A model generated the notes under the pieces. That model did not search any database, was not told where the DNA came from, and was given only the letters and a program-made list of their open reading frames with translations. A DNA stretch of 64,000 bases from the NCBI GenBank assembly GCA_017798145.1, contig CP059069.1, positions 3,643,226-3,707,225 on the forward strand. The letters run 5' to 3'. This DNA comes from Akkermansiaceae bacterium. GTDB lineage: Bacteria > Verrucomicrobiota > Verrucomicrobiia > Verrucomicrobiales > Akkermansiaceae. Below, piece by piece: positions 59,231-62,787 of the stretch; position 1 is the stretch's first letter; every line of letters begins with the position of its first letter. Position numbers and translations under genes: made by a program.

Positions 59231-59977
59231 TCACGGGATTTTCCTGAGGGGAAACACGCTTACCTCCACGGGCTGTGCACAGAGCATGGAGGTGGGATGG
59301 GTTTCGGGTTGGGGGAAGCCGTTGAGGGCGAAGGGGGTGGTCGCGCAGGTGGCCTGCGGCATGGGTGAGATGAGGTAGGGGGCGTGGTGCACCATGCCGC
59401 TGTGGAGTTGGCCGTTTCGATCAACGGAGAAGAGGCGGTAGCGCTCGACGAGGAACCATTCGAGCGAGCCCTCGGCCGCCGTGGCGGGGGAGGAGGGCTG
59501 CGAGGGATAGGTGAAAAGGGCTTGGGGAAGCGTGCTCTTTTTCCGGAGGCTGCAGTAGCGGATGTTTCCCGATTCCACGCAGGAGGACATGCGGGCGTGC
59601 TCGTAGGGGAGATGGAAGAAACGGCGGGCGATCTCCACGGCGAGGGGCTGGTTGCAATCGAGCGAGAAGAACCAGACTCCGGGGTTGCCGTGTTTGTCGA
59701 AGACATAGGTGCGGAGGTTGAGCTCGTGGAACCATGAGAGCCAAGGCAGCGGCGGAAGGCCGGCCGGCCGGACGCGCTGCATGAGGAAGGGGACGATGCC
59801 GAGCCATGCCTTGCCATCGTAGGTGTCTACGCGGAGGCCGGTCGGGATGCGTTCCCGGATGACTGTCGGATCGACGGGCCAGTGGAAGAAACCGAGTCCT
59901 GCCCAGAGCTGTTTCATGACGGGGAGGCCGGAGGGGCGGGAGCGCTGGGCGAGGCGTTGTGCTGGGGTGGGATGCAT
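59231..59977 (-). CDS. DUF2071 (YqjF-like) protein
   Basis: 248 residues from the ATG at 59977. FFHWPVDPTVIRERIPTGLRVDTYDGKAW is the conserved DUF2071 opening, and VWFFSLDCNQPLAVEIARRFFHLPY the second block. The fold is related to acetoacetate decarboxylase; no activity is established for the family. Last gene of the type III PKS set, 70 bp after the synthase stop. Confidence 0.85.
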   Translation of the reverse strand: MHPTPAQRLAQRSRPSGLPVMKQLWAGLGFFHWPVDPTVIRERIPTGLRVDTYDGKAWLGIVPFLMQRVRPAGLPPLPWLSWFHELNLRTYVFDKHGNPGVWFFSLDCNQPLAVEIARRFFHLPYEHARMSSCVESGNIRYCSLRKKSTLPQALFTYPSQPSSPATAAEGSLEWFLVERYRLFSVDRNGQLHSGMVHHAPYLISPMPQATCATTPFALNGFPQPETHPTSMLCAQPVEVSVFPLRKIP

Positions 59978-60047
59978 GCTGGTTGAGGATTGTGTCAGGC
60001 CGCCAAGGATGATGAGTCCGCCTGGCTGGAGCCATTGGTTCCGGTCC

Positions 60048-61079
60048 CTAGGTTCTTGAGAGATGGCAGGAGTGGGCGGCGAAGCCGGCACCGAAGGCGG
60101 TGAGCCAGAGCGAGGTGTCGGCGGGTTGGGTGCGGAGGCGTTCCTCCAGCGCGAAGAGGAGCGAGGGGCTGGACATGTTGCCGTGGTTGGCGAGGACTTG
60201 GCGGGTTTCGGTAAGGTGGAAGCCGGGGATGGCGGTCTCGATGGCCTCGATGACATCGCGGCCGCCGGAGTGGGCGAGGATCTGGTCAGGGGATTTTTGG
60301 CGGCGTTCGTAGAGTTTCGAAACGGCGGATGCTGCGAGTTCGGGGACGCTGCGGTGGAGCTGGTTCTTGAGTTTTCCGCCGGAGTTCGCAAAGCGGATTT
60401 TCTCGCGCTCGGCGGGTATGTGGTGGGTGTCGAAGCCGTGGAATTCCCAGGCTGCTCCGCTTGCGTTCTCGCCGCATAGGATGGCGGCGGCGGCGCCATC
60501 GCCGAAGAGGCAGAGGGAGATGAGGACGCCGGGATCGTCGTCGATGTAGAAGGCGGCGGATGAGATTTCCATGGCGACCACGGCGGCGCGGTGGGTGGGG
60601 TTTGCGGCGAGGTAGCCGTGGGCGGCGCGGAGGGTGGGGATGGCGGCGCCGCAGCCAAGGCCGACGAGATCGCAGAGATAGGCGTCGGCGCGGAGCCCTG
60701 CGATTTCCGCAACATGGCTGGACGGGCCGGGGCAGAGATAACCGGTGCAGGTGCAGAGGAATAGGGCGTCGATTTCATCGGCCCGGATGCCGGCTTTTGC
60801 GAGGGCGCTTGTCAGGGCGGCGGCGGAGAGTTTCGGGGCTTCGTGTTCGAAGGAGCGGTTGAGCTGTTCGGCGTCTTTTCGGAAGATGTGGGTGAGGTCG
60901 GGGGAGGTGAAGCGGCGTTGGGCGATGCCGGAGGAGGGGTTGGTGAGGATTTTTTCCAACAGGGAAAGGGAGCGGGGCTTGAGTTTCCCGATGTCGGGAT
61001 GGGATTGGAGGGCGAGCCATGTCTCCGCCTGGGTGAATGCGTGGGGAGGGTTGGCGGTGGCGAGGCTTGTTAGAAACAT
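60048..61079 (-). CDS. type III polyketide synthase (chalcone/stilbene-synthase superfamily)
   Basis: 343 residues from the ATG at 61079. Thiolase fold; LVGLGCGAAIP holds the catalytic Cys (about residue 143), ILAHSGGRDV the His and LANHGNMSSPS the Asn. CTCTGYLCPGPSSHV is a further signature. It extends an acyl starter with malonyl-CoA and cyclises, typically to alkylpyrones, alkylresorcinols or related phenols. Flanked by an FAD oxidoreductase (26 bp) and DUF2071. Confidence 0.93.
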   Translation of the reverse strand: MFLTSLATANPPHAFTQAETWLALQSHPDIGKLKPRSLSLLEKILTNPSSGIAQRRFTSPDLTHIFRKDAEQLNRSFEHEAPKLSAAALTSALAKAGIRADEIDALFLCTCTGYLCPGPSSHVAEIAGLRADAYLCDLVGLGCGAAIPTLRAAHGYLAANPTHRAAVVAMEISSAAFYIDDDPGVLISLCLFGDGAAAAILCGENASGAAWEFHGFDTHHIPAEREKIRFANSGGKLKNQLHRSVPELAASAVSKLYERRQKSPDQILAHSGGRDVIEAIETAIPGFHLTETRQVLANHGNMSSPSLLFALEERLRTQPADTSLWLTAFGAGFAAHSCHLSRT

Positions 61080-61105
61080 GGCTTGGTGATGGTCTTGTCC
61101 AGTGG

Positions 61106-62107
61106 CTAGCGGACGAGGTGGAGGATGGGGTTGATGGGGGCGATTTTGAGGAAATGGCGGGCGGCGGGGCGGAAGAGCAGGGGGTGGAGGAATCTTGCGG
61201 CGTGGAGGCGTTTCTGGAAACGGCTGCGGAGGGCGTGGGCGATCCGTTCGCAGGTGGTGGGCCAGTTTGTTTTTGCCTTGGCGTAATCCACCAGGTGGGG
61301 GAGGGCGGTTTCCGCGGACTGGAAGGCCATGGTCATGCCGTTGCCGGTGAAGGGCGGGATGATGGAATGGGAGTCGCCGAGCGCGAGGATGCCGGGAGTG
61401 GGTGGCTGAAGGCCGAGCGCGAAGCCCGCTATGGCGGTGAAGGAGTCCGGTTTCCAATCGGCGTTTTCGAGAGCCGCCGCGAGAGCCGTGTTGCCGTTTT
61501 TCCGGAGATAGGCGGGGAGCAGGTCCCTGTGGCTTGCGCTGATGCTGCGGTCTGCGCGGAACAGCCCGCAGACGTTGGTCCATCCGTTTTCGACCGGGGT
61601 GATGCCGAGGTATCCGGTGGGGCCGCTGTGCATTTCTAGGTGGGCGCCGGTTGGGATGTTGCGGACATGCGCCTTTAGGCCGATCCATTTTCCACGGGTG
61701 GGACGTCGGCCTGCGGTCCGGACGGTGGCGGGTTTCCCAGGCTCGGTGTGTTGGCGGGAGAGGGTGCGGATTTCCGCCCCGAGTCCTTTGGCGAGTTGTT
61801 GGAGGCGGTTGTCGAGGAGGTGGCGGGAGATGCCGAGGGCTGGTTCTGGCAGCTTGTTTTCGCGCAGCAGGCGATTACCCGCGAACCATGCGACATCGGT
61901 GTGGCGGAGTGCGTCTTCCAGTGGCTCCGATATGCCGAGGGTTTCGATGGTTTGCCGTGAGATTCCGGAGATGAACTCACCGCAGACGCGGTGGCGCGGG
62001 TAGGTGCCGGCCTCGTGCAGGATCACGGGGACGCCTCGGTTCCGGAGGGCGATCGCGAGGGACAGCCCGGTGAGGCCGCCTCCGTGAATTTTTATGGTTT
62101 CGGTCAA
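61106..62107 (-). CDS. FAD-dependent oxidoreductase (aromatic hydroxylase / geranylgeranyl reductase-like)
   Basis: 333 residues. HGGGLTGLSLAIALRNRG is the Rossmann dinucleotide motif, RHRVCGEFIS a conserved FAD loop, and LALGDSHSIIPPFTGNGM the GD motif contacting FAD ribose. Hydroxylation of the PKS product is the simplest role (as SrsC in Streptomyces griseus); reduction is also possible. 38 bp after the methyltransferase. Confidence 0.85.
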   Translation of the reverse strand: MTETIKIHGGGLTGLSLAIALRNRGVPVILHEAGTYPRHRVCGEFISGISRQTIETLGISEPLEDALRHTDVAWFAGNRLLRENKLPEPALGISRHLLDNRLQQLAKGLGAEIRTLSRQHTEPGKPATVRTAGRRPTRGKWIGLKAHVRNIPTGAHLEMHSGPTGYLGITPVENGWTNVCGLFRADRSISASHRDLLPAYLRKNGNTALAAALENADWKPDSFTAIAGFALGLQPPTPGILALGDSHSIIPPFTGNGMTMAFQSAETALPHLVDYAKAKTNWPTTCERIAHALRSRFQKRLHAARFLHPLLFRPAARHFLKIAPINPILHLVR

Positions 62108-62145
62108 GCCATTGACCCTAACACCGCTTTGCCATCAGGCGAGGG

Positions 62146-62787
62146 CTAGTTTCGCAGGATCACCATGCGGATGGATCCGCGGCAATGCGCGGTTTCCGAA
62201 ATTTGATAATGTTTCCGGTCAATACGCAGCGCATCAGGCAGCTCCCCGGGGCGGAAGCCCGCCTCGATGCTCACCCGCATGTCGTGGCGGGTGATGGGGT
62301 GGATGAATGGGGTGGCGAGTTTCCCCATGAGGAGCGGGAAACTTGCGCGGAGCGGCTCGCTGAAAAGCAGGATGCCGAAGCCGCGCATCCATGTTCCGAG
62401 AGTGGCTAGCTGTGCTTCGGTGAAGTGGTGGAGGAAGAGGTTCGCGATGAGCACGCCGCCATGTGCGGGAGGGGCTTGTGCGAAAATGTCGCCCCGGTGC
62501 CATGAGATGTTTTCCGCCAGATGCGCGGGGCGGGGGGCGAGATCGTAGGCGGAGATTTCCGCCCGGGGATGAAGTTTGGAGATTTTGGAAAGCAGTAACC
62601 CATCGCCCGCGCCGATCTCGGTGATATGGGCGGGATGATCCGGGATCTTGCGGATGATCCACCGGTCGTTTCCCATGAAACAATTTATCCGTGCGAGGTC
62701 GCGGCGGGAGCGGATCGCGCCGGGGTCGTCGTGCGGGATGCTGTCGAGGAGTTCGGGGGTGAGCCTGCGGGAGGATAGGTCTGGCAT
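62146..62787 (-). CDS. SAM-dependent methyltransferase
   Basis: 213 residues from the ATG at 62787; the longer frame is Arg/Pro-rich and unlike protein. Class I Rossmann fold: ITEIGAGDGLLLSKIS (motif I, SAM), ISAYDLAPRP (motif II), VLIANLFLHHF (motif IV). Likely methylates the polyketide product. First gene of the biosynthetic set, with a 50-bp gap to the divergent MBL-fold hydrolase. Confidence 0.85.
   Translation of the reverse strand: MPDLSSRRLTPELLDSIPHDDPGAIRSRRDLARINCFMGNDRWIIRKIPDHPAHITEIGAGDGLLLSKISKLHPRAEISAYDLAPRPAHLAENISWHRGDIFAQAPPAHGGVLIANLFLHHFTEAQLATLGTWMRGFGILLFSEPLRASFPLLMGKLATPFIHPITRHDMRVSIEAGFRPGELPDALRIDRKHYQISETAHCRGSIRMVILRN

What the first reader, a model, noticed from the sequence alone, without database searches (positions are those of the whole stretch)
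59231..62787. Compact type III polyketide set: methyltransferase, FAD oxidoreductase, type III PKS, DUF2071
Seen: four minus-strand genes in this order with gaps of 38, 26 and 70 bp, Cys-His-Asn of a type III PKS intact, FAD and SAM motifs intact. Known: S. griseus srsABC pairs a type III PKS with a methyltransferase and a flavoprotein to make methylated phenolic lipids. Inference: this Verrucomicrobiota locus makes a methylated, oxidised alkyl-phenol or quinone, with DUF2071 as a partner of unknown chemistry. The DUF2071 gene is the unusual part and could be a cyclase, decarboxylase or binding protein.
Basis: partly seen in the sequence, partly recalled or inferred. Interest (0 to 1): 0.7.

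Follow-up and report, generated by a model that had tools for sequence, protein, structure and literature searches.

The report
Three-gene type III polyketide operon
This bacterial locus holds a conserved three-gene set (a methyltransferase, a flavin enzyme and a type III polyketide synthase) that is likely to make a methylated, oxidised phenolic lipid, while the fourth gene that looked unusual sits beside the set only in a few members of the same genus.

Summary
The four genes, gaps and motifs are as described, but the conserved unit has three genes. In 195 family genomes the polyketide synthase (PKS, 129), FAD enzyme (128) and methyltransferase (MT, 130) occur together: PKS and FAD disagree in 5. 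MT and FAD are adjacent in 121 of 126 genomes with both; FAD lies directly upstream of PKS in 101 of 126, and in 24 of the other 25 MT and FAD are adjacent elsewhere. DUF2071 follows PKS in 7 of 94 family genomes with both, is convergent with it in one, and lies near it in 0 of 55 loci from a phylum draw. It has an acetoacetate-decarboxylase-like fold without a conserved lysine. The gene order matches cyanobacterial hidABC and a planctomycete operon whose synthases make alkylresorcinols. The window's PKS lies in another branch, and its FAD enzyme lacks the DG-motif aspartate (0 of 51 rows). A methylated, oxidised alkylresorcinol or quinone-like lipid is the likely product; no chemistry was tested. 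Verdict: a real pathway of a mostly known kind; DUF2071 is probably not part of it.

The parts
62146..62787 (-). Class I SAM-dependent methyltransferase (MT), first gene of the core
   Evidence: match in 130 of 195 family genomes at 1e-12
61106..62107 (-). Compact FAD oxidoreductase, TTG start, DG-motif aspartate absent; second gene of the core
   Evidence: match in 128 of 195 family genomes at 1e-20
60048..61079 (-). Type III polyketide synthase with Cys143-His270-Asn301; third gene of the core
   Evidence: match in 129 of 195 family genomes at 1e-40
59231..59977 (-). DUF2071 (PF09844) gene, acetoacetate-decarboxylase-like fold; a neighbour in some members of the genus, probably not part of the core
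62788..62837 (.). 50 bp between the divergent metallo-hydrolase gene and the MT start, where a promoter of the operon would be expected; no sigma-70-like match found

Best explanation
The locus carries a co-occurring MT-FAD-PKS gene set in which the type III PKS would likely build an alkylresorcinol-type phenolic lipid from a fatty acyl starter and malonyl units, the FAD enzyme is predicted to oxidise its ring and the methyltransferase is predicted to methylate it, and DUF2071, which sits beside the set only in a few members of the genus, is likely a neighbour rather than a partner. Shown here: the genes, their intact motifs, the shared presence and absence of the three, the conserved order, and the absence of DUF2071 beside nearly all sampled relatives. 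Inferred: the substrate, the ring chemistry, the order of steps, and the role as a methylated quinone-like or hydroquinone-like lipid. The MT and FAD behave as a tight pair that can sit apart from the PKS and still be kept with it.
For: Presence in 195 family genomes (tallied): PKS 129, FAD 128, MT 130; PKS and FAD together 126, discordant 5; FAD and MT together 126, discordant 6; PKS and MT together 125, discordant 9. Eight of 44 genomes of the window's own genus have none of the three (read; whether this is one loss or several was not tested). MT and FAD adjacent in 121 of 126; FAD directly upstream of PKS in 101 of 126; in 24 of the remaining 25 MT and FAD are adjacent elsewhere. Class loci: FAD beside PKS in 31 of 35 and MT in 30 of 35, with no other neighbour constant over them. 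In two relatives of one other family MT and FAD sit together away from the PKS; in two of another neither was found. In each of the three trees the sampled rows of this group form one set (PKS and MT sets are joined by one gammaproteobacterial row). Published operons with the same order make alkylresorcinols, and MT plus FAD of Gimesia maris together added a methyl group (passages of PMC10896814). The FAD model resembles aryl monooxygenases and halogenases.
Against: No product, expression or enzyme activity was measured. The PKS is only 25-28% identical to ten sequences of the other main clade, 28-32% to planctomycete ones, and its best match among solved structures scores 80 bits. The FAD enzyme lacks the DG aspartate, so hydroxylation as in PHBH-type enzymes is uncertain. 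Some separations between PKS and MT-FAD may be contig breaks (G359 probably is). G128 and G228 and G350 and G436 of the family have the PKS without a match to MT or FAD. DUF2071 and PKS are correlated over the whole family (odds ratio 15, p 9e-15), although within the genus the association is not significant (p 0.13), and DUF2071 is adjacent in 7 of the 10 closest PKS bearers.
Confidence: 0.68

Rival explanations
1. A four-gene pathway: in this sub-genus DUF2071 joined the operon and acts on the polyketide as a cyclase, decarboxylase or binding protein.
For: Same strand and about 60-240 bp downstream of the PKS in the window and six relatives of the genus; ADC-like fold, the fold of enzymes that act on beta-keto acids; no terminator-like site between PKS and DUF2071; family-wide correlation of the two genes.
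Against: Only 7 of 94 family genomes with both (read); in a close relative DUF2071 sits beside the metallo-hydrolase while MT-FAD-PKS is on another contig (L233 and L234); two close relatives have the core with no DUF2071 match; 10 genomes have DUF2071 without a PKS match; no invariant lysine in 22 homologues.
Confidence: 0.1
2. The PKS makes a product other than a resorcinol (an alkylpyrone, or a short aromatic such as a dihydroxyphenylacetyl or phloroglucinol type) that MT and FAD then modify.
For: Best NCBIfam model is DpgA, at 116 bits against a cut-off of 425; the PKS lies apart from the clade that holds the planctomycete operon loci.
Against: The MT-FAD-PKS order matches operons whose synthases give alkylresorcinols. 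The DpgA match is far below its cut-off.
Confidence: 0.3
3. Chance neighbours with no shared pathway.
For: The genes lie in a longer same-strand run, so closeness alone means little.
Against: Shared presence and absence of MT, FAD and PKS over 195 genomes, including genomes where PKS is on another contig. The counts are not corrected for kinship.
Confidence: 0.02

Closest known systems
Planctomycete MT-oxidoreductase-type III PKS operon (Gimesia maris, Rhodopirellula baltica; PMC10896814)
   Same: Same three functions, same order with the PKS last (58 of 96 planctomycete PKS genes in that paper).
   Different: Planctomycete loci with FAD just before the PKS have PKSs 28-32% identical to the window's that fall in another clade; 6 of 8 such FAD rows (two from one genome) have Asp or Glu at the DG motif. 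That these unnamed loci are of the tested kind is inferred from gene order.
Cyanobacterial hidABC, hierridin pathway (PMC8086630, PMC10896814)
   Same: Order hidA methyltransferase, hidB oxidoreductase, hidC type III PKS.
   Different: HidC clusters with the planctomycete enzymes; the HidABC sequences themselves were not available to compare here.
Streptomyces griseus srsABC
   Same: Type III PKS, methyltransferase and flavoprotein giving methylated phenolic lipids (recalled).
   Different: SrsB is recalled as an integral membrane methyltransferase of the ICMT type; the window's MT matches only class I SAM models, weakly.
Bacteroidota FAD-MT-PKS clusters (Flavobacterium, Aquimarina and others)
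   Same: Same three families; the FAD enzyme also lacks the DG aspartate (0 of 26 rows) and falls in one 25-row group with the window's FAD clade and four planctomycete rows (support 92, order inside unresolved).
   Different: Order FAD-MT-PKS in most of these loci, and the PKS lies on the other side of the PKS tree.

Membership tests
Type III polyketide synthase | Cys-His-Asn triad and match to the family model above its cut-off | tested here: met
   Cys143, His270, Asn301; PF08392 66.3 bits against 27
hidABC-like MT-oxidoreductase-PKS operon | Gene order MT, oxidoreductase, PKS on one strand | tested here: met
   Window coordinates; FAD directly upstream of PKS in 101 of 126 family genomes
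hidABC-like MT-oxidoreductase-PKS operon | PKS groups with HidC and the tested planctomycete enzymes | tested here: inconclusive
   The window PKS is outside the clade that holds the planctomycete loci with FAD just before the PKS, but HidC itself was not in the tree
hidABC-like MT-oxidoreductase-PKS operon | PKS product is an alkylresorcinol | not testable with these tools
   No chemistry available
srsABC type | Methyltransferase of the ICMT membrane type (recalled) | tested here: not met
   Pfam scan gave Methyltransf_2 and Methyltransf_12 only, no ICMT model at E 0.01
Geranylgeranyl reductase family TIGR02032 | Score above the curated cut-off | tested here: not met
   56.4 bits against 158.8
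PHBH-type flavoprotein monooxygenase | Aspartate of the DG motif (motif name and role recalled) | tested here: not met
   Threonine-alanine-glycine in the window; 0 of 51 rows of its group have Asp there, against 26 of 36 other rows outside Bacteroidota
Flavin-dependent halogenase | WxWxIP motif (recalled) | tested here: not met
   Found in 0 of 113 FAD rows, the window included
DUF2071 (PF09844) | Match above the gathering score | tested here: met
   214.4 bits against 27
Acetoacetate decarboxylase-like fold | Structural match over most of the domain | tested here: met
Acetoacetate decarboxylase as an enzyme | Schiff-base lysine | tested here: not met
   No invariant or nearly invariant lysine among 22 homologues; PMC4520260 reports Lys115 not conserved in PF09844 (passages)

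The most novel reading that the evidence does not exclude
The MT and a DG-less FAD enzyme form a portable tailoring pair that bacteria combine with different type III PKS lineages; in the window's class this gives a widespread membrane redox lipid, missing from the small-genome genus of the family, with an FAD enzyme whose reductant is not NAD(P)H bound in the usual way.
Probability: 0.2. Interest if true: 0.6.

Novelty: new member of a known kind. Interest (0 to 1): 0.35.

Why it matters
It corrects a lead (DUF2071 as a polyketide enzyme) and replaces it with a firm, testable unit: three genes that occur together or are missing together in a group of bacteria for which I saw no paper on such a product (searches; 25 of 42 and 15 of 35 papers listed, passages of two Verrucomicrobiota papers read). 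The PKS is present in 129 of 195 sampled genomes of the family, and natural variants offer tests: genomes with the PKS but no MT or FAD match, and genomes with the PKS on another contig than MT-FAD.

Tried and rejected
DUF2071 as operon member: judged unlikely on synteny. DUF2071 as acetoacetate decarboxylase: fold shared, no conserved lysine; a sequence profile of DUF2071 found no ADC chain in the PDB, so the relation rests on fold, on a weak Pfam ADC match (16.4 bits) and on PMC4520260. Halogenase reading of the FAD enzyme, prompted by the best fold matches: no WxWxIP motif. DpgA reading of the PKS: far below cut-off. A further gene constant over the 35 class loci: none found (some six-frame clusters of overlapping reverse frames in that list are artefacts, and six loci of one family share more neighbours). 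A conserved context for DUF2071 elsewhere: none shared by all; up to 8 of 36 loci place it near sugar-type oxidoreductase or isomerase genes and 4 near a PEP-carboxykinase-like gene (names are my reading of the sequences). Promoter and terminator scans: one promoter-like site (mean 0.7 expected) and six terminator-like sites (mean 4.0), no help. The search for homologous proteins listing shows the best 120 of 5154 and was used for organism names only.

The correlation of DUF2071 with PKS over the family (94 both, 35 PKS only, 10 DUF2071 only, 56 neither) is evidence against my reading; the 'neither' genomes include one small-genome genus, of which 20 listed members lack the PKS, and the test in the window's genus (23, 12, 3, 6) gives p 0.13. 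Neither test corrects for kinship.

Selections: 55 of the 61 other PKS-bearing loci were fetched; trees used rows that I chose from 165 loci (70 for the PKS tree, plus the window); the FAD model used 32 chosen rows and the DUF2071 model 22 chosen from 30 loci, partial or unclear ones dropped. The rows are not independent genomes: L214 and L285 come from one genome, and L165 and L275 are identical.
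Full report
What is there. The four minus-strand genes are at the stated places with gaps of 38, 26 and 70 bp. The PKS has Cys143, His270 and Asn301, the FAD enzyme a GxGxxG from residue 9, and the MT the SAM motif from residue 57. The PKS and DUF2071 pass their Pfam cut-offs; MT and FAD match known families only below them, and the FAD enzyme reaches 56.4 of the 158.8 bits needed for the geranylgeranyl reductase family. The FAD start is TTG; in the alignment of 32 rows several begin at about the same place, though row starts were picked by script. 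Names of the nearest database proteins point to Luteolibacter. A globin gene follows DUF2071 after 70 bp, and a metallo-hydrolase gene lies divergently 50 bp above the MT, so spacing alone does not single out DUF2071 as an operon member.

The core is three genes. In a draw of 288 genomes of the phylum, 62 had a PKS match at 1e-20. I fetched 55 of the 61 loci outside the window's genome. Among the 35 that carry the close orthologue (45-64% identity), FAD lies beside it in 31 and MT in 30, on the same strand and upstream; clustering of open frames around these loci found no further gene constant over them. In 195 genomes of the family the PKS matches in 129 (1e-40), the FAD enzyme in 128 (1e-20) and the MT in 130 (1e-12). 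PKS and FAD are both present in 126 and disagree in 5; FAD and MT in 126 and 6; PKS and MT in 125 and 9. Within the window's genus 8 of 44 genomes have none of the three (G352, G390, G407, G414, G420, G426, G432, G438; read). MT and FAD are adjacent in 121 of 126 genomes, FAD is directly upstream of PKS in 101 of 126, and in 24 of the other 25 MT and FAD are still adjacent to each other elsewhere. Some of those 25 may be contig breaks: in G359 the PKS lies some 370 bp from a contig end. In G293 it is no break, since the MT-FAD contig runs on for about 140 kb past FAD. Outside the family, G210 and G131 have MT and FAD together on another contig than the PKS, and G128 and G228 have the PKS with no match to either.

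DUF2071 is a neighbour. It matches in 104 of 195 family genomes, 94 of them with the PKS. Reading the coordinates, it lies directly downstream of the PKS in 7 of these 94 (the window, G382, G359, G372, G417, G440, G422) and next to it but convergent in one (G405); all eight are of the window's genus. No DUF2071 match at 1e-3 lay in any of the 55 loci L033-L087, which span up to about 8 kb on each side, some cut by contig ends. Among the ten closest PKS bearers (68% identity or more, window included) it is adjacent in 7, without a match in two (G399, G446) and apart in one: in G403 DUF2071 stands beside the metallo-hydrolase gene, and MT-FAD-PKS is on another contig. This suggests, as an inference, that the core and DUF2071 met at one chromosomal place in this sub-genus. 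Elsewhere DUF2071 has changing neighbours. Against this reading, DUF2071 and PKS are correlated over the whole family (odds ratio 15); the genus-level test is not significant (p 0.13).

Relatives of the core. Profile searches found MT and FAD homologues near many of them, in different orders, and neither near others. In a tree of 71 chosen PKS rows the window's clade (15 rows, SH-aLRT 99) joins one gammaproteobacterial row and then a cross-phylum group; the planctomycete loci with FAD just before the PKS and the Bacteroidota fall on the other side of the midpoint. In the FAD tree (57 rows) the same group is one clade (100); in the MT tree (50 rows) it is one with the gammaproteobacterial row (100) and 85 without it. 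On a wider scale MT and FAD do not follow the PKS groups: starred branches force at least 3 changes of the hid-side label in the FAD tree and 5 in the MT tree, where that label is barely more clustered than in shuffles (73 of 500 as low). These are quick trees without bootstraps. So the set looks stable within this group but seems to have been recombined between phyla.

The FAD enzyme. Its model (pLDDT 93.0) matches flavin halogenases, 3-hydroxybenzoate 6-hydroxylase, PqsL and geranylgeranyl reductase-like proteins. At the place of the DG motif, 0 of 51 rows of the window's group (window, class loci and loci of like PKS) and 0 of 26 Bacteroidota rows have an aspartate, against 26 of 36 other rows, with 4 more having glutamate (some rows come from one genome). 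The window's group is also shorter (median 334 against 384 aligned residues; some of the other rows are cut by contig or locus ends). That this motif serves cofactor binding in related monooxygenases is recalled; what its loss does here is unknown.

How it most likely works. By analogy with the planctomycete operon (abstract, passages and section 13 of PMC10896814 read), in which the PKSs gave penta- and heptadecylresorcinols and MT plus FAD of Gimesia maris together added one methyl group, the window's PKS would make an alkylresorcinol-type lipid that FAD oxidises and MT methylates. In that paper the role of the FAD enzyme remained open. hidABC in cyanobacteria has the same order (PMC8086630, passages).

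Novelty. Two species descriptions mention a type III PKS cluster in this phylum; the passages I read do not analyse it (PMC9865893 and PMC11427321). Searches for the phylum with type III PKS (42 papers, 25 listed) and with alkylresorcinol (35 papers, 15 listed) showed no listed title or abstract on this operon in Verrucomicrobiota; unlisted papers were not seen. I file it as a new member of a known kind.

Noticed in passing
L227:10266-11115 and L228:11274-12066: In two close relatives the gap between MT and FAD holds inserted genes that look like toxin-antitoxin genes (HigA-like in one, VapB and VapC-like in the other; names from my reading of the translations).
   Followed up: partly
58774-59160: A bacterial-type globin gene, PF01152 87 bits, starts 70 bp below DUF2071.
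   Followed up: no
L002:1501-1887: The window's genome has a second, partial DUF2071 match (32.7 bits over 126 positions) far from this locus.
   Followed up: no
L234:1-16001: In one close relative the metallo-hydrolase and YhdP-like genes that flank the core in the window flank DUF2071 directly, with the core on another contig.
   Followed up: yes
L153:6001-8990: A Methylococcus genome has a PKS that groups with the Geobacter relatives beside an MT and FAD that group with Halomonas and Limnoglobus, as if the PKS had been exchanged.
   Followed up: partly
L153, L191, L195 and other loci: MT, FAD and type III PKS genes occur together in several phyla in different orders, a wider pattern than the planctomycete and cyanobacterial cases in the papers I read.
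   Followed up: partly
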